Of a stretch of 64,000 nt of DNA, positions 6,077 through 20,268 are shown piece by piece. The DNA comes from Actinoplanes couchii. GTDB taxonomy: Bacteria > Actinomycetota > Actinomycetes > Mycobacteriales > Micromonosporaceae. How positions within the stretch are numbered: the stretch's first letter is position 1; every line of letters begins with the position of its first letter. The stretch is taken from assembly GCF_016862075.1 (NCBI RefSeq), contig NZ_BOMG01000032.1, positions 62,001 to 126,000 of the forward strand, read 5' to 3'. The notes below the pieces were generated by a model, which saw only the letters and a list, made by a program, of their open reading frames with translations, did no database searches and was not told the origin of the DNA. The position numbers and the translations under genes are program-made.

Positions 6077-6179
6077 AACAGACCTCCTCAGAACCAGGTG
6101 CGGAAGTTCTATCCCACGGGTACGACAAAACCGCATCGGCCCAGCTCAGAAGAGACGGGGGTAGGCCGATCGGGAAGAC

Positions 6180-8144
6180 GTGGCGGGTCTGGCTCGGGTG
6201 ACTATCAAGGTGCGCGTCATCGCGTCGATGACACTGATGCTGCTGGTGTCGATGGCGGTCGTGGTCGGCTGGATCGCGGTACGCAACGCGACCGAGGCCC
6301 GGGAGACCGGCTTCGCCTACACCGACGAGATGGCCAAGGGCAGCGCCTCCGACATCCAGGAGGTGATTCTGGGCGGGCTGAGCACCGCCCGGGACATGGC
6401 CCGGGTACTCGGCGCGGCCTCCGCCGGCGGCGGTGACCGGGTGCTGGCGAACGCCCAGCTCAAGGCGGTCCTGGAAGCCCACCCGGAGTATCTCGGCACG
6501 TGGACCGGATGGGCGGCGGGCGCGTTCGACGGCGCCGACCGGAAACACCGCGACGCCGGTCCCGGCGACGACGCGACCGGCCGGTTCGTGCCCTACTGGT
6601 TCCGCGACGGCGACAAGATCGGCCTGACCCCGCTGGTCGACTACGACAAGGCCGGGCCCGGCGACTACTACCAGGTGCCGCTGACCACCGGCCGGGAGAA
6701 GGTGGTCGAGCCCTACTTCTACGAGGTCGGTGGCGAGCAGACCCTGATCACGTCGGTGGCGGTGCCGATCGAACGTGGCGGGACGGTCGTCGGGATCTCC
6801 GGCATCGACATGTCGCTGGCCACGCTGCAGGGCCTGGTCGGCGCGGTGAAGCCGTTCGGCTCCGGGACCGCGGTGCTGCTCAGCACGGCCGGGACGGTGG
6901 TCAGCGGCGCCGGGGAGGCCGGGCAGGCCGCACCGGCGGACCTGGTCGCGCTCGCCGGGCGGACGGTCACCGCCGGAACCTCCTCCCGCGAGGTCACCGA
7001 GGTGGGCGGCGAGGAGACACTGCGGATCGCCGCGCCGCTGACCCTGGGCGGCAGCGACACCTGGACGCTGATCATCGAGGTGCCCACCGCCACCGTCCTG
7101 GCCGCCGCGAACAGCACGTTCTGGGCCAGTGTGCTGATCGGGCTGGTCGCCGCGGTGATCGCCGGGGTGGCCGCGTTCTTCCTGGCCCGGTCGGTCGTCG
7201 GCCCGATCGAACGGCTCCGCGACCGGATGGCCGAGATCGCCGACGGCGACGGCGACCTGACCCAGCGGGTGACCGCCGACCGCGACGACGAGGCCGGGCA
7301 GATGGCCGCCGCGTTCAACCGGTTCGTGGAGAAGGTGGCCGTCACGATCCGCGGCATCGCCGGGGCCAGCGGGACGCTGAGCACCGCCGCGCAGGAGCTC
7401 CAGGTGGTCAGCCGGCAACTGGAGAGCGGCGCGTCCACCGCGTCCAGCCAGGCCGGCAGCGCCAGTTCGGCGAGCGAGGAGGTCAACGCCGGGGTGCAGG
7501 CGATCGCCGCGGGCGCCGAGCAGATGAGCGCGTCGATCGCCGAGATCTCGTCCAACGCGACCCAGGCGGCGCAGGTGGCGTCCCAGGCGAAGCAGATCGC
7601 CGAGCGCACCAACGAGCAGGTCGCCGAGCTGGGCACGGCCAGCACCGAGATCGGCGAGGTGGTCCAGCTGATCACCTCGATCGCCGAACAGACGAACCTG
7701 CTCGCGCTGAACGCGACCATCGAGGCGGCGCGGGCCGGGGAACTCGGCAAGGGCTTCGCCGTGGTGGCCGGTGAGGTGAAGGATCTGGCGCAGCAGACCG
7801 CGAACGCGACCGAGCAGATCACCGCCCGGATCACCGCGATCCAGTCGTCCAGCGAGGCGGCGGCCCTCGCGATCGGGGAGATCGCGCAGGTGATCGAGCA
7901 GATCGGCGACTACACCACCACGATCGCGTCGGCCGTGGAGGAACAGACCGCGACGACCGCCGAGATGAGCCGTACCGTGACGGAGGCCGCCGGTAACAGT
8001 GGTGATGTCGCCCGTACCATCGTCGGGGTCGCCGGGGTGGCCTCGTCCACCGCCGACGGCGCCCGGACCACCCAGCAGGCCGCCGCGAACCTCACGCACC
8101 TGGCCGACCAGCTCACCGGCCTGGTCGGCGCCTTCCGCTACTGA
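6180..8144 (+). CDS. methyl-accepting chemotaxis-type receptor
   Basis: A 654-residue membrane receptor. TM1 is about residues 12-32; an extracellular Cache-type sensor follows, containing the YWFRDG and [10 protein letters not shown] stretches typical of dCache ligand pockets. TM2 is about 312-336, followed by HAMP (about 337-390) and a long coiled-coil signalling domain. The hairpin tip reads [19 protein letters not shown], the canonical CheA/CheW contact. It probably senses small ligands such as amino or organic acids and signals to a kinase array; no che genes are in this window. The GTG 6180 start is uncertain because GTG 6198 is also possible. The 3' end overlaps the convergent SARP gene by 7 bases. 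Confidence 0.9.
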
Positions 8145-11789: not shown

Positions 11790-12314
11790 GTGAGACTGAG
11801 AAGGCTTCTTGTCGTCCCGCTCGCGGTGACCGGACTGATCGCCGCCACGGGGGTGCCGGCACAGGCCACCTACTACAGCGGCGGCATGCCCAGCCGCACC
11901 TTCAACTACAAGACGGTCGGCATCAACTCGACCTGGGTGGCGTTCTACGACACCGGCAACATCCGCTGGAACCAGCGCGTGAACAGCCACATCGGCCGCA
12001 GCACATCGGCCGCGGCCGATGCCACGGCGGGCTCCTACTCGCAGAGCTGGTACGGCCAGTACACCCCGCACGGGGTCCGCGGGGTCAACCGCACGTTCAG
12101 CATCAAGGTCAACTCGCGAACCCTCCAGGCCAGCGCCGGGTCCAATTACACGGCCTGGATCACGAGCACGGTGACCCACGAGATCGGCCACGCCCTGAGC
12201 CTGGACGACAATCCGAACACCACCCAGGCGTCATTGATGAAACACAGCAGGAATCGCACCACGTCGCAATTGCCGACCGCGTACGACATCAGCGAAGTGG
12301 AGAGGATCTACTGA
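11790..12314 (+). CDS. secreted matrixin-like zinc metalloprotease
   Basis: A 174-residue exported protein. The signal peptide is about residues 1-27, ending APAQA-like (VPAQAT). The metzincin site is HEIGH (130-134) with the third ligand position at Asp140 (HExxHxxSxxD), and Met150 in ASLMKH is a plausible Met-turn. Metzincins normally have Gly at the position of Ser137. It is small, essentially a bare catalytic domain without a propeptide. GTG 11790 has GGGGAGG 7 bases upstream. The stop overlaps the next start (TGATG), so it is co-translated with the lipoprotein gene. It should act outside the membrane; the substrate is unknown. Confidence 0.85.
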   Translation: MRLRRLLVVPLAVTGLIAATGVPAQATYYSGGMPSRTFNYKTVGINSTWVAFYDTGNIRWNQRVNSHIGRSTSAAADATAGSYSQSWYGQYTPHGVRGVNRTFSIKVNSRTLQASAGSNYTAWITSTVTHEIGHALSLDDNPNTTQASLMKHSRNRTTSQLPTAYDISEVERIY

Positions 12315-12937
12315 TGGGCCGGAAAGGTGGAATCGCCGCCGGGGCGATTGTTTTCGCGCTGCTGTCAGGGTGCTCCGCGCAGCCGGCGACGGAAGACGCG
12401 AAGGTCGTCGAATACCACTTCGACTACCCGGTCTACGACAACGCCGAGCAGATCATCGGCACCGCGGACGTGATCGTGCGCGGCACGGCGGTGGCGTCGC
12501 GGGCCGAGTGGCTCTACCCGGAGACGTCGACCGAGACCGACCCGCTGCTCAACCCGCAGGCCGGGCTGTCGGCCGGGGAGATCGCGCAGTGGCGGGAGGA
12601 CGCCGCGGTCGCGGTGACCGTCTCCACGCTCGAGGTCACCGAGGTGCTCAAGGGCGAGGTCGCGGTCGGTGAGCGGGTCGAGGTGAGCCAGGTCGGCGGC
12701 ACGCTCGACGGGGTCACCTACACCGAGCAGCACACCACCGTGCTGCCGTCGGACGGCTCCGAGTTCGTCCTGCTGCTGGCCGACCACGGCGCCGGCAAGC
12801 CGTTCGACCTGCTCAACCCGGAGCAGGCGCTGTACGGGGCGAACGGCTCCGCACCGCTGGAGGCGGTCGCCGAGGACGCGCCGCTGGACAACGAGACGAC
12901 CGGGGACATCAGGGCCGAGGTCGCGGCGCAGAAGTGA
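12314..12937 (+). CDS. lipoprotein, paralogue of the facing anti-sigma-like ectodomain
   Basis: A 207-residue lipoprotein with signal peptide and lipobox LLSGC (Cys about 19). The mature part contains TADVIVRGTAVASR, a TVSTLEVTEVLKGE strand pair, GSEFVLLLAD and LLNPEQALYGANG. Each has a counterpart in the membrane protein encoded by the convergent gene ending at 12979. Translation is coupled to the matrixin gene. Function is unknown; a surface sensor, protease substrate or regulator of the facing sigma system is an inference. Confidence 0.8.
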   Translation: MGRKGGIAAGAIVFALLSGCSAQPATEDAKVVEYHFDYPVYDNAEQIIGTADVIVRGTAVASRAEWLYPETSTETDPLLNPQAGLSAGEIAQWREDAAVAVTVSTLEVTEVLKGEVAVGERVEVSQVGGTLDGVTYTEQHTTVLPSDGSEFVLLLADHGAGKPFDLLNPEQALYGANGSAPLEAVAEDAPLDNETTGDIRAEVAAQK

Positions 12938-12940
12938 GGG

Positions 12941-12976
12941 ACGTCGCCGGCCGGGGGGCGACCCGGCCGGCGACGT
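12941..12976. terminator. bidirectional stem-loop terminator
   Basis: Perfect 15-base arms (12941-12955 and 12962-12976) with a 6-base loop, centred between two convergent stops at 12937 and 12979. There is no U-tract on either side. Confidence 0.85.
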
Positions 12977-12978
12977 GT

Positions 12979-13608
12979 TCAGGACACCCCCAGCGACGAC
13001 GTCACGGCGGCACTGAGCGCGACCGTGTTGTCGACGGTGGGGGTGAGTTCGCCCCCCGCGACGGTGTAGTAGCCCTGGGTGGTGTTGACCAGGTTCCACG
13101 TCGTGGCGTCGCGGGACTGCAGGAGCAGCACGTACTCACCGCCCTTGCGGATGCCCTCGGCCTGCTCCGGGCCGGTGGACGAGTAGGCGATCTCGATCGA
13201 CGAGCCCGGCTTCGGGTCGCCCTTGGCCACCTTGCCCACCGAGACGGTGGCCACGGTCTCGGTGATGCCGTCCGCCGTCACCGTCCGGGTGGCGCTGACG
13301 GTGGCCCGGACGATCGCCTCGGCGTTCTCCTCCAACTCGGCCGTGTCGCGGTAGAACGGCTGGTCCGACATCGCCGGCGGCGCCGGGTCGCGCAGCACGA
13401 TCGCACCGGCCACCCCGACGCCGACCACGACCACCGCGGCGGCGGCCAGGCCCCACACCAGGGTGCGGCGGCGGGCGGGCGGGCGTTCGAACTCGGCCGG
13501 GCGGCTGCCCAGCAACTCGGCGAGCCTGGTCTCGGCCCGCTCCTCGCTCTCGACACGGTCGTTGCGCACCGGATTCGCCTCCTGCATCAGTCGCTTAACG
13601 CTTGGCAT
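12979..13608 (-). CDS. membrane anti-sigma-like protein with extracytoplasmic sensor domain
   Basis: A 209-residue single-pass protein. A charged cytoplasmic segment (1-48) is followed by one TM helix (about 49-71) and an outer domain. No zinc-binding anti-sigma HxxxCxxC motif is present. ATG 13608 has GGAGG 6 bases upstream and overlaps the ECF sigma stop by 14 bases, so they are coupled. Outer-domain segments (NAEAIVRATVSATR, TVSVGKVAKGD, GGEYVLLLQS, LVNTTQGYYTVAGG) match the lipoprotein at 12314-12937 in order. The likely role is to hold the sigma factor inactive until an envelope signal arrives; this rests on context. Confidence 0.75.
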   Translation of the reverse strand: MPSVKRLMQEANPVRNDRVESEERAETRLAELLGSRPAEFERPPARRRTLVWGLAAAAVVVVGVGVAGAIVLRDPAPPAMSDQPFYRDTAELEENAEAIVRATVSATRTVTADGITETVATVSVGKVAKGDPKPGSSIEIAYSSTGPEQAEGIRKGGEYVLLLQSRDATTWNLVNTTQGYYTVAGGELTPTVDNTVALSAAVTSSLGVS

Positions 13609-14101
13609 GACCGACCTCCGTGATGGCTTTGAAGGACCGCTTGAACGCCTGCCGGGCCCGGTGCAGCCGCACCCAGACGGCCGACACGGACAGGCCGGTG
13701 AGCGCGGCGATCTCGCTCGCGCCGAGGTCGTCCCAGTAGCGGTGGACCAGGACGTCGCGCTGCGCCTCGGGCAGCTGCTCCAGCACCTCGGACACCAGGT
13801 CGGCGGTCTCGCCGGCGGGTTGACCGCCCGGCGACGTGACGGCGAGTCTGCGGTACGCGAAATCACCGCGCTGCACCGACCGGCGATGGTTGCTCAGCAC
13901 ATGGCGTGCCGTCACGAACAGCCAGGCCGGTGTGAGCACCTCCCCCCGCACGCTCTTGTCCCACGCGATCCGGAAGACCTCCGCGGTCAGATCCTCCGCC
14001 TCGGCCTCCTCGCCGACCCGTCGCGCGACGAACCGCAGGACCCGCCCGTGGTTCGCCCGGTACAGGTCGGTGAATCCCTGCTCTGGTGGATCGTTGCCCA
14101 T
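13595..14101 (-). CDS. ECF-type RNA polymerase sigma factor
   Basis: A 168-residue sigma-70 family protein. Region 2 is near the N-terminus (DLYRANHGRVLRFVARRV ... DLTAEVFRIAWDK). Region 4 follows: LEQLPEAQRDVLVHRYW, then the HTH SEIAALTGLSVSAVWVRLHRAR. ATG 14101 is preceded by GAGGAGGG at good spacing. It is co-translated with the downstream membrane anti-sigma-like gene. It probably directs envelope-response genes; the facing protease/lipoprotein operon is an obvious candidate target, but I could not identify a matching promoter. Confidence 0.92.
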   Translation of the reverse strand: MGNDPPEQGFTDLYRANHGRVLRFVARRVGEEAEAEDLTAEVFRIAWDKSVRGEVLTPAWLFVTARHVLSNHRRSVQRGDFAYRRLAVTSPGGQPAGETADLVSEVLEQLPEAQRDVLVHRYWDDLGASEIAALTGLSVSAVWVRLHRARQAFKRSFKAITEVGHAKR

Positions 14102-14203
14102 CGGTCCCTCCTCGGCCTGTACATGTCGGCCGGTACCCGGATCCTTACCTCCGCGGAGAGAAACTTTTCGCCGGCGACGGCCGGGTGGGGCGATGACGAC
14201 AGA

Positions 14204-16438: not shown

Positions 16439-16984
16439 CTATTTGCCCTCGCGGGCATGGATCTGCGCCACCAGTTCCGCGGCCAGAGTCTTGATGGTCT
16501 CCAGCCCCGGCCGGCCCCACGGGCGCGGTTCGGTGTCCACCACGCAGACCGTGCCGAGCGCGACCCCGGTCCGGTCGATCAGTGGAGCGCCCAGATAGGA
16601 GCGGATGCCGATCTCGTCGACCACCGGATTGCCGGCGAACCGGGGATAGTCGCAGACGTCGTCGAGGACGAGAGCCTTCCGCCGGACGACGACGTGCGGG
16701 CAGTACCCGTGCTCGCGCGAGAACGTACGGCCGGACAGTCCCATCCGGAGGGCGACCGGCAGCTCGGGTCCGGCGTACAGGCCGCCCAGGTACTGGTGGT
16801 CCTCCTGGATGAAGTTGACCATTGTCAACGGCGCCTTGGTGACTTCGCCCATCCGGCGCGCGAACTCGTCGAGCAGCGGATCCGGGCCGTCGCCCAGCCC
16901 GAGTTCCTTCAACCGGACGAGGCGGTTGGGCACCTCCGGATCCATCGGGGTCAGCGGGTGGTTTCCGGAGAGGTCGTAGATCAT
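16439..16984 (-). CDS. GAF domain sensor protein
   Basis: A 181-residue protein that is essentially one GAF domain (about 28-175). Recognisable elements are APLTMVNFIQEDHQYLGG, HGYCPHVV, VLDDVCDYPRFAGNP and IRSYLGAPLIDRTGVALGTVCVVD. GAF domains bind small ligands, haem or cyclic nucleotides; the ligand here is unknown. ATG 16984 has GGAG 8 bases upstream. It follows CvnD by 16 bases on the same strand and so is a fifth member of the conservon operon, where Streptomyces conservons often carry a P450. Confidence 0.88.
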   Translation of the reverse strand: MIYDLSGNHPLTPMDPEVPNRLVRLKELGLGDGPDPLLDEFARRMGEVTKAPLTMVNFIQEDHQYLGGLYAGPELPVALRMGLSGRTFSREHGYCPHVVVRRKALVLDDVCDYPRFAGNPVVDEIGIRSYLGAPLIDRTGVALGTVCVVDTEPRPWGRPGLETIKTLAAELVAQIHAREGK

Positions 16985-17000
16985 TCCGGATCTCCGTTCG

Positions 17001-17576
17001 TTATCGGGGGGCCTGTGAGGCGAGGAGATGGTGCATCAAACTGATCAGCACACCGGTCGCGGACCGCTGGTCCCGAGCGTCGCAGTGGACTATCGGGATG
17101 TCGGGCTTCAGGTCCAGGGCGCTGCGCAGGTCGTCCAGCTCGTACCGGATGCCGCTGTCGAACTCGTTGACCGCGACCAGGAACCGGATGCCGCGGGACT
17201 CGAAGAAGTCCACGGCCGGGAAACAGTCGGCCAGCCGGCGGGTGTCGGCCAGCACGACAGCACCCATCGCACCGCCGGACAACTCGTCCCACATGAACCA
17301 GAAACGCTCCTGGCCCGGCGTACCGAACAGATAGAGCACGTGGTCCCGGCTGATGGTGATGCGGCCGAAGTCCATCGCGACCGTGGTCGTCGACTTCTGC
17401 TCGACACCGGTCAGCCGGTCGGTGCCCACACTCGCGGTGGTGAGCAACTCCTCGGTACGCAGTGGCTCGATCTCGCTGACCGAGCCGACGAACGTCGTCT
17501 TGCCCACGCCGAATCCGCCCGCGATCAAGAGCTTGAGCGCGGACGGGAACCCGTCAGAGCCGTTGTTTGAGGGCAT
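17001..17576 (-). CDS. CvnD-type small GTPase-like protein
   Basis: A 191-residue Ras-like P-loop protein. Walker A is GGFGVGKTT, the switch II-equivalent is FGTPGQERF, and the base-recognition region reads VNEFDS in place of NKxD. It belongs to the conservon (Cvn) D family, which works with CvnA-C as a membrane-associated, G-protein-coupled-receptor-like module in actinomycete differentiation. The start (ATG 17576) lies inside the DUF742 gene, overlapping by 23 bases. Confidence 0.9.
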   Translation of the reverse strand: MPSNNGSDGFPSALKLLIAGGFGVGKTTFVGSVSEIEPLRTEELLTTASVGTDRLTGVEQKSTTTVAMDFGRITISRDHVLYLFGTPGQERFWFMWDELSGGAMGAVVLADTRRLADCFPAVDFFESRGIRFLVAVNEFDSGIRYELDDLRSALDLKPDIPIVHCDARDQRSATGVLISLMHHLLASQAPR

Positions 17577-17931
17577 AGATGATGGTCTCCAGTACCGCCG
17601 GGTTCGAATTGTCAGCCATCGGGTCGGGAGCCCGGGTGTCCACCGCGCCCCAGCCCGCGAGATCGGAGAGCAGGATCTTGGCGACCACCGCGGGCAACCT
17701 CAACCGCGCCGCGATCTCGGCGACCGTGGTGACGCCGCTGCAGAGATCGAGTGCCTGGGAGTGATCCGGCCCGAGGTGACCGTGCGGGCGGCGGCCGGTG
17801 GCGATCACCATCGACAGCAGCTCCATCCGGATGGACGGCTCGGTCCGCCCGTTGCTCACCGTGTACGGCCGGATGAGACGTCCCGCGGCGTCGTCGAACC
17901 AGTTGTCGTCGTCGGTCTCGGAGATTCTCAC
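17554..17931 (-). CDS. CvnC-type DUF742 protein
   Basis: A 125-residue DUF742 protein. It has the family hallmarks RLIRPYTVSNGRT near residue 18 and a winged-helix-like region with LDLCSGVTTVAEIAARLRLPAVVAKILLSDL. GTG 17931 overlaps the roadblock gene stop (GTGA). In conservons this component bridges the histidine-kinase-like and GTPase subunits. Confidence 0.92.
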   Translation of the reverse strand: MRISETDDDNWFDDAAGRLIRPYTVSNGRTEPSIRMELLSMVIATGRRPHGHLGPDHSQALDLCSGVTTVAEIAARLRLPAVVAKILLSDLAGWGAVDTRAPDPMADNSNPAVLETIIYALKQRL

Positions 17932-18362
17932 CGTCCGTGCGTACCGGGGAACTCAGCCTCGTGCCGGGTCGGCGTCGCCAGGTACGGCCGGACGCTCTTG
18001 ACCATCTGCGCCATCTCGTAACCGAGCACCCCCGGGTCGGCCGACTTGCCCGCGAGCACCGCGAGCACCGCCCCGGACCCGGCCGCCGACACGAACAGCA
18101 GCGAGGTGTCGAGCTCGGCCACCACCTGCCGGACCCCGTCGCTGCCGTCGAAACGGGTGGCGGCGCTGCGGGCCAGCGAGAACAGCCCCGAAGCGATCGC
18201 GGCCAGATGGTCCGCGCCGTCGTCGTCGAGCCCGTGGGCGGCCTTGCGCAAGCCGTCCGACGACAGCAGCAACGCGCTTCTGGTGTGCGGAACCCGGTCG
18301 ACCAGGCCGGACAACAGCCAAACGAGATCCTGGGACCGGTGGACGGAATCGATGCGTGACAT
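17928..18362 (-). CDS. CvnB-type roadblock/LC7 protein
   Basis: A 144-residue roadblock/LC7 domain protein (DLVWLLSGLVDRVPHTRSALLLSSDGL ... LLFVSAAGSGAVLAVLAG). Such proteins act as GTPase-activating or scaffold partners of the CvnD-type GTPase. ATG 18362 has AGGAAGG about 10 bases upstream. The gene sits between CvnA (36-base gap) and DUF742 (overlap). Confidence 0.92.
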   Translation of the reverse strand: MSRIDSVHRSQDLVWLLSGLVDRVPHTRSALLLSSDGLRKAAHGLDDDGADHLAAIASGLFSLARSAATRFDGSDGVRQVVAELDTSLLFVSAAGSGAVLAVLAGKSADPGVLGYEMAQMVKSVRPYLATPTRHEAEFPGTHGR

Positions 18363-18398
18363 GGAGCCGGGCCTTCCTGAGGAACAGACGGTGGGGAA

Positions 18399-19778
18399 TC
18401 AGCCGTGACTTTCGGGGCCGGACGCGTGGGCCTCGGCTTGCGAGACACCGTTCATGAACGATGCCATCAGGCCCGGGTTGTGCTCGCCGGCCAGGTCCTT
18501 GGCGGGCGCCGCCGGGCCGAGCTTCAACTGCGGGGCCATGTGGGTCTGACTGTGGCGGCGCGGGAGTGGGGGCCGCGCCGGCGTCGGTGGCGGTGGCGGT
18601 GGCGGTGCCTGCACGTAGTCGGGGACGATCGGGACGACCTGCGGGTACGCGGCGGTCGGCCCGGCGTCACCGTGCCCGGTGTAGGCGAGATCGGAACGCG
18701 CCGGGGCAGCGGGCGCCGTCAGGACCGGGGCGGACACGACGTGGTCCGGCACGGTCTCGGCCGTCGGGAGACGGAACGGCGCCTGCGGTGGCGACGGAGG
18801 CTGCTCGTGCACCGGGGCCGGGGTTCCCGGCCCGGTCATGGCCGGCGCGATCTCCGGCGGTGTGCCGATCAGCAGGCGCGGCAGGATGACCACCGCCTGG
18901 GTGCCGCCGTAGATGTTCGTCTGCAGCTGCACGATGATGCCGTGCTGCCGGGCGATCATCGAGACCACGTAGAGCCCGATCCGCCCGTCCCGCAGCAGGT
19001 CGTCCAGGTCGACCGACTGCGGATCGGCCAGCAGCCGGTTGACCCGGTCCTGGTCGGCGCGCTGGATGCCCAGACCGCGGTCCTCGATCTCGACCGCCGC
19101 CCCGGCGGTGACCTGCTGGGTGCGCAGCAGCACCTGGGTGTGCGGTGGCGCGAACATCGTCGCGTTCTCGATCAGCTCGGCGATCAGGTGGATGACGCTG
19201 GCGACGGCGTGCCCGGGCACGGTGCCCTCGATCGGCGGCACCAGCTTGACCCGCGAGTAGTACTCCACCTCGGCGATCGCCGAACGCAGCACCTCGGTCA
19301 GGGCGACCGGGCGGCTCCACTGCCGGCGCGACACCGAACCACCGAGCACCGCCAGGTTCTCCGCGTGCCGCCGGATCCGGGTGGCCAGGTGGTCGACCTG
19401 GAAGAGACCCTTCAACAGGTCGGGGTCCTCGACCTCGTTCTCCAGCGCGTCGAGCAACTTGATCTCCCGGTGCACCAGCGACTGCAGCCGCCGGGAGAGG
19501 TTGACGAAGACCTCGACGTGGCGGTCGTCGGCGTGCGTGGCCGATTTCCGGACGGTCTCCATCTCGGTGTGCAACAGCCCGAGCCGCTCGGTGAGCCGGC
19601 CGACATCGGAACGTGCCGCGGTCAACTGGGACCGCGTCTCGGCGAGCTCGGTGCGAGCCTGCTCGGCCAGGGCCCGCTGCTCGTTCGACCGGGCGTCGCC
19701 GCGCCGGTTCGCCCAGACCGCGAAGACGACCGCGGCCAGCACCGCGATAGCGGCGACCAGATATGGGGTGTCGGGCAT
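18399..19778 (-). CDS. CvnA-type sensor histidine-kinase-like protein
   Basis: A 459-residue membrane protein. One N-terminal TM helix (about 6-24) is followed by a coiled coil (30-85), a dimerisation region and an ATPase domain with N-box LIAELIENATMFAPP and G-region DRGLGI and GRIGLYVVS. A long proline-rich tail (about 310-440, including a PPPPPPP run) is typical of conservon kinases and nitrate/sulfonate-sensor-like relatives. ATG 19778 is chosen over ATG 19784 because AAGGA lies 5 bases upstream. It is the first gene of the conservon operon. Confidence 0.88.
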   Translation of the reverse strand: MPDTPYLVAAIAVLAAVVFAVWANRRGDARSNEQRALAEQARTELAETRSQLTAARSDVGRLTERLGLLHTEMETVRKSATHADDRHVEVFVNLSRRLQSLVHREIKLLDALENEVEDPDLLKGLFQVDHLATRIRRHAENLAVLGGSVSRRQWSRPVALTEVLRSAIAEVEYYSRVKLVPPIEGTVPGHAVASVIHLIAELIENATMFAPPHTQVLLRTQQVTAGAAVEIEDRGLGIQRADQDRVNRLLADPQSVDLDDLLRDGRIGLYVVSMIARQHGIIVQLQTNIYGGTQAVVILPRLLIGTPPEIAPAMTGPGTPAPVHEQPPSPPQAPFRLPTAETVPDHVVSAPVLTAPAAPARSDLAYTGHGDAGPTAAYPQVVPIVPDYVQAPPPPPPPTPARPPLPRRHSQTHMAPQLKLGPAAPAKDLAGEHNPGLMASFMNGVSQAEAHASGPESHG

Positions 19779-20268
19779 AAGCATCCTTGTTCTTGGTGAT
19801 GCGGCAATGTCCGGTATGGAGGCTCAGTCACTCTAGTGGCCCCGGCGGCTCGTGGCCAAGGTGAGAAATCGGTTCCTGGTATTAACGCCAGGAAGCCGAG
19901 ACCCGGGACGCCGACTGACGCCCGTCACTGCTTGTCCCCGGCCGTTCGCAGTCCGTTTCGACAGGCCCGTCACCAGCGACTTCACCGCAGCTCCGGCCGA
20001 GTCGTCCACCCTGTCCGTCCTAATAGCCACCGACGACATGGGCGAGTTTTGGGGGATTAGGGGATTAACGCCCGCCGAAAGTTAGGGATGACCGGGAGCC
20101 ATCCGATGAATTGACTCGGGCTCCCGCTCCGGTCCGGCTCCACACACATAGGAACGGAATCTTCACTAATCAATCGCCGCACCGCCAATGAGCACGGCGG
20201 CCGGCGGGTAAAGACGGTGCGATGGCCCCACCCCGCTGGAACGGGAACTCGAAGAGGCGGCGCGATGG
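19779..20268. other. 490-base intergenic region upstream of the conservon
   Basis: No supported gene. It contains short duplications (GGGGGATTAGGGGATTAA at about 20050-20067; GACGCC words near 19900-19920) and the presumed conservon promoter near its left end. The right part borders the degenerate BNR-type sequence. Confidence 0.45.

What the first reader, a model, noticed from the sequence alone, without database searches (positions are those of the whole stretch)
11790..14101. Matrixin protease and lipoprotein facing an ECF sigma/anti-sigma pair that share a paralogous outer domain
The lipoprotein (12314-12937) and the membrane anti-sigma-like protein (12979-13608) align along four ordered motifs (xADxIVRxT, TVSxxxVxKG, GxEFVLLL, LLNxxQxxY). 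The lipoprotein is co-translated with a minimal secreted metzincin. A plausible system: the protease clips the anti-sigma ectodomain or the lipoprotein acts as decoy or competitor, releasing the sigma factor. I know of no described system with this composition.
Basis: partly seen in the sequence, partly recalled or inferred. Interest (0 to 1): 0.7.

Follow-up and report, generated by a model that had tools for sequence, protein, structure and literature searches.

The report
Metzincin, TIMP-like lipoprotein, TIMP-like anti-sigma
An actinobacterium carries genes for a secreted zinc protease and for a surface lipoprotein shaped like the animal inhibitors of such proteases, next to a gene-switch pair whose membrane sensor carries a related outer domain, which suggests, but does not show, that some bacteria read protease activity at their surface this way.

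Summary
A small secreted metzincin (11790-12314) and a lipoprotein (12314-12937) face an anti-sigma/ECF-sigma pair (12979-13608, 13595-14101). Lipoprotein and anti-sigma ectodomain are homologous (profile-profile E 4.7e-17). The lipoprotein model (pLDDT 88.7) has the TIMP/netrin (NTR) fold: the first 13 Foldseek rows are TIMP/NTR proteins (best E only 2e-3), best aligner Z 11.2. The metzincin/TIMP-fold pair recurs in Actinomycetota and one Bacillota genome, and by layout and fold matches a published Listeria pair, Mtz-Tim, in which Mtz cuts Tim near its N-terminus (PMC8235301). So the pair is not new. What I did not find in print is the ECF sigma/anti-sigma arm with a Tim-like ectodomain. All four genes, convergent, occur in 8 of 8 Streptomyces loci of one scan. 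The modules are separable: 5 of 9 sampled Streptomyces genomes with the anti-sigma have no Tim match. A two-box site precedes sigma in 9 of 9 four-gene loci, not the metzincin. Best reading: Mtz engages or cuts the anti-sigma at its Tim-like tether and so frees sigma, with Tim competing. Binding, cleavage and sigma release are inferred, not shown.

The parts
11790..12314 (+). small secreted metzincin (Mtz-like): signal peptide (by eye) then catalytic domain, no room for a prodomain
   Evidence: ORF and translation; homologues aligned (H130, E131, G133, H134, M150 invariant in 14 rows); PDB profile hits are nearly all metzincins, weak; Pfam below cut-off
12177..12209 (+). zinc-binding motif HEIGHALSLDD (metzincin HExxHxxGxxH/D with S for G), residues 130-140
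   Evidence: sequence; alignment
12314..12937 (+). TIMP/NTR-fold lipoprotein (Tim-like), one-base overlap with the metzincin stop
   Evidence: AlphaFold2 model; fold searches
12362..12373 (+). lipobox LSGC; the Cys is invariant in all 24 rows of A4
12419..12853 (+). NTR/TIMP-like domain (about residues 36-180), with the conserved DYPxY at residue 37
12979..13608 (-). membrane anti-sigma factor with Tim-like ectodomain (cytoplasmic about 50 aa, one membrane span, tether, NTR-type domain)
   Evidence: gene overlaps the sigma gene
13393..13449 (-). membrane span, residues 54-72 of the anti-sigma
   Evidence: hydropathy
12982..13365 (-). Tim-like ectodomain of the anti-sigma, from DQPFY (residue 82)
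   Evidence: fold not predicted, by homology
13595..14101 (-). ECF sigma factor (regions 2 and 4)
   Evidence: Pfam Sigma70_r2 5.8e-10 and Sigma70_r4_2 4.5e-16, above cut-off
14120..14148 (-). two-box, promoter-like site GTAAGGA-N15-ACATNTA before the sigma gene; read as self-regulation (inference)
   Evidence: 0 mismatches in 9 of 9 four-gene loci; only exact copy found in the genome

Best explanation
This is an actinobacterial Mtz-Tim pair (secreted metzincin plus TIMP-fold lipoprotein) wired to an ECF sigma factor through an anti-sigma whose ectodomain is itself Tim-like. Both Tim-like proteins have the same plan: membrane anchor, short tether, conserved DxPxY, NTR-type domain. In Listeria, Mtz cuts its Tim near the N-terminus and sheds the TIMP-like part. 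I propose that Mtz likewise engages and cuts the anti-sigma tether outside the membrane as a site-1 protease, starting regulated proteolysis that frees sigma, while Tim on the surface is the competing substrate or inhibitor that sets the threshold. Sigma then acts at its own promoter. Shown: gene anatomy, homology, NTR fold of the lipoprotein model, recurrence of the layout, the two-box site. Inferred: binding, cleavage, competition, sigma release, self-regulation, and what else the regulon holds.
For: Ectodomain and lipoprotein homologous. TIMP/NTR fold of the lipoprotein model: TIMP-2 first in Foldseek (E 2.1e-3, prob 1.00), agrin NtA Z 11.2, N-TIMP-3 Z 10.9 over 117 residues at 3.0 A. Metzincin directly upstream of a Tim-domain gene: 18 of the 19 metzincin-motif genes among 617 genes called in 53 loci, most chosen for a Tim-type gene and some repeating one genomic place. 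Metzincin-seeded search: 5 of 394 genomes matched, the window's own among them, and 5 of 5 have a Tim-domain gene next downstream. Four genes in 8 of 8 Streptomyces loci of the scan and in 4 of the 9 genomes with a Tim match in a 246-genome Streptomyces sample; two of those four repeat scan loci. In that sample 9 of 246 have a Tim match, 9 of 246 the anti-sigma, 4 both, and in those 4 the two are adjacent and convergent. Anchor, tether, DxPxY plan in both proteins. Listeria Mtz cuts Tim and needs its catalytic Glu (PMC8235301, section 4.3 read).
Against: 5 of 9 Streptomyces genomes with the anti-sigma have no Tim match, 4 of them with a recognisable sigma gene, so the sensor can live without this pair. 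The metzincin has no such two-box site upstream, so no feedback loop is visible. Pairs found outside Streptomyces, the window apart, lack the sigma genes beside them. DxPxY is also conserved in lipoproteins without a neighbouring protease, so it may only be structural. No complex could be modelled, the anti-sigma was not folded, and the metzincin model failed (pLDDT 47.7). Foldseek E-values are above 0.001 and its TM-scores low (0.27-0.37 by query over ranks 1-20 apart from one at 0.28 to a membrane protein). Homology to the Listeria proteins themselves was not tested by sequence.
Confidence: 0.42

Rival explanations
1. Non-cleaving sensor: Tim is a true inhibitor of Mtz (TIMP-like), and the anti-sigma ectodomain binds free Mtz, or Tim, reversibly; binding rather than cutting changes anti-sigma activity.
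For: TIMP fold beside a metzincin that is too short for a prodomain; bacterial metzincin-inhibitor pairs with another fold exist (alkaline protease and its inhibitor, named in PMC8235301, passage seen).
Against: TIMPs inhibit with a free N-terminal Cys (recalled); here the only Cys is the lipidated one, 16 residues before DYPVY. In Listeria the shown relation is cleavage of Tim, not inhibition.
Confidence: 0.23
2. Independent neighbours: the NTR-type domain is a general surface module in these bacteria; the sigma/anti-sigma pair senses something else (for example cell-wall state) and is near mtz-tim by history.
For: 10 of the 24 scan loci (Asanoa, Dactylosporangium, Micromonospora and kin) have the lipoprotein without a metzincin beside it; sigma/anti-sigma without Tim in 5 of 9 Streptomyces genomes that have the anti-sigma; the anti-sigma proteins form one clade of their own on a long branch, 14 rows, support 100/100.
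Against: Same convergent order in 8 of 8 Streptomyces scan loci; Tim and anti-sigma are both rare (9 of 246 each), yet 4 genomes have both, adjacent in all 4.
Confidence: 0.25
3. Tim is a membrane-held steric chaperone or surface anchor for the prodomain-less protease, as lipase foldases are for lipases (recalled); the anti-sigma reads unused protease or chaperone.
For: Downstream, overlapping, membrane-anchored partner of a prodomain-less secreted enzyme.
Against: In Listeria, tagged Mtz is reported in the culture supernatant from strains expressing tagged Mtz, and Tim is cut when both are made (section 4.3).
Confidence: 0.1

Closest known systems
Mtz-Tim pair of Listeria monocytogenes (Boichis et al. 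2021, PMC8235301; abstract, passages, and sections 4.1 and 4.3 read)
   Same: Secreted metzincin gene directly followed by a lipoprotein gene with TIMP-like fold; the authors report the pair in other Gram-positives too
   Different: The Listeria pair is run by a CI/Cro-like switch and is phage-associated; the paper's text has no 'anti-sigma', and its two hits for 'sigma' are a supplier's name. Here a Tim-like ectodomain sits on an ECF anti-sigma facing the pair
Animal TIMPs and other NTR domains (agrin NtA, PCOLCE, C345C of C3, C4, C5)
   Same: Fold of the lipoprotein model
   Different: No sequence match at Pfam threshold (best: the Aquibacillus member, 11.5 bits against 23.1, E 0.26); one Cys only, lipidated, so no disulfides and no free Cys1
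Anti-sigma factors released by a site-1 protease (RseA/DegS, passages of PMC8103513; RsiV/lysozyme, search listing of PMC4183432)
   Same: Membrane anti-sigma whose outer part controls release of an ECF sigma
   Different: Ectodomain family and the co-encoded metzincin/Tim pair; cleavage is not shown here

Membership tests
Mtz-Tim pair | secreted metzincin gene with HExxHxxGxxH/D and Met-turn, directly upstream | tested here: met
   HEIGHALSLDD (S at the Gly place) and SLM; signal peptide by eye; one-base overlap with the next gene
Mtz-Tim pair | downstream lipoprotein with TIMP-like fold | tested here: met
   lipobox LSGC, Cys invariant in A4; TIMP/NTR at the top of both fold searches
Mtz-Tim pair | sequence homology to the Listeria proteins | not tested
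   Listeria sequences were not at hand; phage, plasmid and viral-contig searches with the Aquibacillus pair found nothing
Mtz-Tim pair | Mtz cleaves Tim near its N-terminus | not testable with these tools
   needs proteins; shown for Listeria only
TIMP (PF00965) | NTR/OB fold | tested here: met
TIMP (PF00965) | Pfam TIMP model above cut-off | tested here: not met
   no TIMP hit for P0002; 1 of 24 members touches it, E 0.26, below cut-off
TIMP (PF00965) | free N-terminal Cys1 and disulfides (recalled) | tested here: not met
   the only Cys is C20 of the lipobox
Matrixin M10 | Pfam matrixin model above cut-off | tested here: not met
   P0001 scores 14.5 against 24; 11 of 14 members match PF00413 at E up to 1, best 4.5e-6
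Matrixin M10 | matrixin catalytic-domain fold | tested here: inconclusive
   model too poor, pLDDT 47.7; no fold search run on it
ECF sigma factor | regions 2 and 4 above cut-off | tested here: met
ECF anti-sigma factor | gene overlaps the sigma gene; single membrane span with positive side inside | tested here: met
ECF anti-sigma factor | binds and inhibits its sigma | not testable with these tools
   no complex modelling or assay; NCBIfam anti-sigma model only 20.5 bits against 100
Zinc-binding anti-sigma (ZAS) | HxxxCxxC in the N-terminal part (recalled) | tested here: not met
   no His or Cys in residues 1-46

The most novel reading that the evidence does not exclude
A bacterial protease-meter: an anti-sigma factor carries a TIMP-like ectodomain with which it competes with a surface TIMP-fold lipoprotein for a co-encoded metzincin, so that transcription by the ECF sigma reports free metzincin activity at the cell surface.
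Probability: 0.35. Interest if true: 0.82.

Novelty: new variant of a known kind. Interest (0 to 1): 0.62.

Why it matters
TIMPs are best known as partners of animal metalloproteases (recalled). A TIMP-like domain used both as the partner of a bacterial metzincin and as the sensor of an anti-sigma factor would give a direct route from extracellular protease activity to transcription, and would show the metzincin/TIMP-fold partnership in free-standing actinobacterial loci as well as in phage-linked Listeria ones. It also gives a fold and a candidate ligand to a domain for which the Pfam scans gave no consistent family (one of 24 members touched DUF7311 at E 5e-5, not followed up).

Tried and rejected
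Matrixin as a family label: rejected for the window protein. Metzincin structure: the model was too poor, so no fold search was run on it. Sigma-type box before the metzincin: none, best 4 to 6 mismatches in the 9 loci, not better than shuffles. Sigma regulon in the own genome: 14 sites with up to 2 mismatches (1 exact) against 24 for the reversed control, so no regulon can be read. Solved relatives of the lipoprotein family by sequence: none at E up to 10. Phage or plasmid carriage: no relatives of the lipoproteins or metzincins queried in viral contigs, phages or plasmids; the Listeria report says that the pair is phage-linked there, so this is a negative for my queries only. CarG, a myxobacterial regulator with a dead metzincin motif (passages), is a different thing. 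PHROGs: only weak hits, best E 0.008. Papers: searches listed the Listeria pair, and no row shown was a TIMP-like anti-sigma; some lists were cut (47: 15 of 193; 68: 12 of 279; 81: 10 of 13), and only open-licence PMC papers are held.

Counts and their limits: the scan used one short pattern near the lipoprotein C-terminus, so its 24 loci are a biased sample; 14 have a metzincin upstream (8 with the sigma genes) and 10 do not. In one search, 17 of 250 family genomes have a lipoprotein match, 6 of 250 have a metzincin match, and the 3 weak places (2 genomes, E above 1e-4) have no Tim gene marked beside them. One search counts 42 of 250 for the anti-sigma; many of the weak hits cover only its N-terminal and membrane part and were not followed up. 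The genome searches score only a few candidates per genome, so their counts are lower bounds. Anti-sigma-only Streptomyces loci: the two-box site is exact in 3 of 5 and was not found in 2 (L158, L159).
Full report
What is there. The metzincin (174 aa) has a signal peptide (by eye) followed at once by a catalytic domain with HEIGHALSLDD and a SLM turn; HExxH starts at residue 130, which leaves no room for a prodomain. The lipoprotein starts on the last base of the metzincin stop codon. Its lipobox Cys is invariant in 24 aligned relatives and is its only Cys. The anti-sigma gene overlaps the ECF sigma gene; the protein has about 50 cytoplasmic residues, one membrane span (54-72) with the positive side inside, a 9-residue tether and the ectodomain. 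The sigma factor passes Pfam for regions 2 and 4; the other three proteins pass no Pfam cut-off. The contig that holds the pair in G028 has the length of a Spirilliplanes record that carries the same proteins, so the window's family is Micromonosporaceae.

The two outer domains are related. One pairwise BLASTP gives E 1e-4. Smith-Waterman against shuffled ectodomains gives 2 of 2000 as high. Profile against profile gives probability 98.8, E 4.7e-17 over 127 columns. An HMM made from 24 lipoproteins alone finds the anti-sigma-type ectodomains of three loci not used in it (L075, L078, L080) at E 1.4e-12 to 4.5e-14 in a small database. The window anti-sigma by itself finds 12 lipoproteins among 277 genes of loci L088-L111 at E 1e-5 or better, besides the 8 Streptomyces anti-sigmas. 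A tree of 43 full-length proteins puts the 14 anti-sigma-type rows in one clade (100/100) on a long branch; this suggests an old split rather than a recent duplication in this genome, though the tree is rooted only at its midpoint.

The fold. The lipoprotein model from the window protein and 23 relatives has mean pLDDT 88.7; its first 30 residues are low-confidence. Foldseek against the PDB gives TIMP-2, agrin NtA, PCOLCE NTR and TIMP-1 as its first 13 rows; rank 14 is a membrane protein complex. The best E is 2.1e-3 and none is below 0.001, with TM-scores by query of about 0.3-0.37, so Foldseek alone is suggestive. The structural aligner, which re-aligns Foldseek's own matches, gives agrin NtA Z 11.2, N-TIMP-3 Z 10.9 (117 residues, 3.0 A), TIMP-1 Z 10.4, and C345C domains of complement C3, C4 and C5 at about 8.3 to 10.5; the tool's note gives 7 to 8 as a typical best Z for models without a clear match. 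The 50 rows shown are NTR-type proteins or complement components. The start of TIMP aligns near residue 36-38, at the conserved DYPxY. The anti-sigma was not folded. The metzincin model failed (pLDDT 47.7); by sequence profile its nearest solved relatives are metzincins of several families, all weak (best E 0.006), and 11 of 14 members touch the Pfam matrixin model.

The protease and the TIMP-fold protein travel together. Of 250 genomes of the window's family, 17 have a lipoprotein match and 6 a metzincin match. In the four genomes with strong metzincin matches (window, G028, G133, G229) the lipoprotein gene is next downstream; the two others, G042 (two places) and G109, match weakly and have no Tim gene marked beside them. 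Two further family genomes, G214 and G024, have a different metzincin beside a divergent Tim-domain gene. In a class-wide sample, 5 of 394 genomes have a strong metzincin match (G000 itself, G490, G379, G571, G583), and 5 of 5 have a Tim-domain gene next downstream. The genome-contig scan returned 24 loci: 14 have a metzincin directly upstream, namely 8 Streptomyces, 4 Nonomuraea (one labelled Actinomadura parvosata), Spirilliplanes, and the Bacillota Aquibacillus; 10 (Asanoa, Dactylosporangium, Micromonospora and kin) have none beside the lipoprotein. In 53 fetched loci with 617 called genes, 19 genes carry the metzincin motif and 18 of these lie directly before a Tim-domain gene; most of these loci were chosen for a Tim-type gene and some repeat one genomic place, so this is an enrichment inside the loci, not a set of independent counts.

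The four-gene layout. In 8 of 8 Streptomyces loci of that scan the metzincin-lipoprotein pair faces the anti-sigma/sigma pair as in the window; window sigma, anti-sigma and metzincin each find their counterpart in all 8. In a 246-genome Streptomyces sample, 9 have a Tim-domain match; 7 of these have a metzincin beside it, 4 of them with the sigma genes too (G490, G707, G740, G780; the first two carry the same lipoprotein as scan loci L100 and L102), one a pair without them (G696) and two with a divergent metzincin (G816, G840); G688 and G741 have neither in the 1.5 kb held on each side. In the same sample 9 genomes have the anti-sigma: the same 4, plus 5 (G645, G667, G796, G811, G850) with no Tim match at the limit used and no mtz or tim remnant in the stretch held; G645 is decayed, the other 4 have a recognisable sigma gene. 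So the modules are linked but separable. In the window's own genus, G174, G158, G226, G176 and G198 have the anti-sigma-type protein without a match for the pair. G174 keeps its sigma whole; in G226 only the first residues are left, in G158 it is in broken pieces, and none was found in the stretches of G176 and G198. The sigma thus seems to decay in some, not all, relatives that lack the pair.

Regulation. A two-box site GTAAGGA-N15-ACATNTA lies just before the sigma gene in 9 of 9 four-gene loci; the shorter form GTAAGGA-N15-ACAT also stands before the sigma genes or remnants of G174, G158 and G226 and in 3 of the 5 anti-sigma-only Streptomyces loci. The window copy (14120-14148) is the only exact one in the genome. 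No such box stands before the metzincin. I read it as self-regulation; that is inference.

Prior work. Boichis et al. 2021 (PMC8235301; abstract, passages and two sections read) describe in Listeria a secreted metzincin, Mtz, followed by a lipoprotein, Tim, TIMP-like by Phyre2. Mtz cuts Tim, the catalytic Glu is needed, the released form lacks about 50 N-terminal residues, and similar pairs occur in other Gram-positives. [quoted passage not shown] The pair in the window is therefore an actinobacterial case of a known kind by layout and fold; homology to the Listeria proteins by sequence was not tested. No row shown by my paper searches (some lists cut) was a TIMP-like domain on an anti-sigma factor.

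Mechanism. Lipoprotein and anti-sigma have the same plan: membrane anchor, short tether, DxPxY (in the anti-sigmas D[EQ]PxY/F, once DEIQY), NTR-type domain. In Listeria the cut that frees Tim is about 50 residues in, and the remainder was the part that Phyre2 called TIMP-like with more confidence. Shown here: anatomy, homology, fold of one domain, recurrence. Not shown: any interaction. Against it: the anti-sigma persists in genomes without a Tim match, and DxPxY is conserved in lone lipoproteins too.

Verdict. A real, recurrent, partly described system with a regulatory arm that I did not find described. Interest 0.62; new variant of a known kind.

Noticed in passing
own genome G000:C39:146509-147624 (locus L116): A second ECF sigma/anti-sigma pair whose anti-sigma ectodomain has weak NTR-type similarity (hhalign E 8e-6 over 43 columns; found by the A1 model, which holds anti-sigmas, but not by the lipoprotein-only A4 model), with a 2-mismatch copy of the same two-box site just before its sigma gene.
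   Followed up: partly
loci L077 (G226) and L076 (G158): The sigma gene is a remnant or in pieces in relatives that keep the anti-sigma but have no match for the metzincin-lipoprotein pair.
   Followed up: partly
loci L138 (G816), L139 (G840), L137 (G741): Streptomyces with a divergent metzincin (HEVGHFTGLAH) plus Tim-domain lipoprotein beside a putative FKBP-type gene; in G741 no metzincin is seen and a pafA-like gene stands beside the Tim gene (names recalled).
   Followed up: partly
locus L081 (G028, contig 14), about 6118-6573 (-): A lipoprotein-like reading frame with the anti-sigma type of NTR domain and no sigma seen beside it, in a genome whose metzincin-Tim pair lies on another contig.
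   Followed up: partly
loci L098, L099, L106, L109, L110 (Dactylosporangium): Lone Tim-domain lipoproteins at one conserved place beside a DNA polymerase III gamma/tau-like gene (name recalled); role unknown.
   Followed up: no
window 16439-19784 (-): A run of GAF-like, small GTPase-like, DUF742-like, roadblock-like and histidine-kinase-like genes that looks like a conservon (gene; names by eye).
   Followed up: no
locus L129 (G583): Metzincin-Tim pair in a 3.5 Mb genome of the class with transposase-like ORFs close by (by eye), in line with the mobile-element link that the Listeria paper reports for Firmicutes.
   Followed up: no
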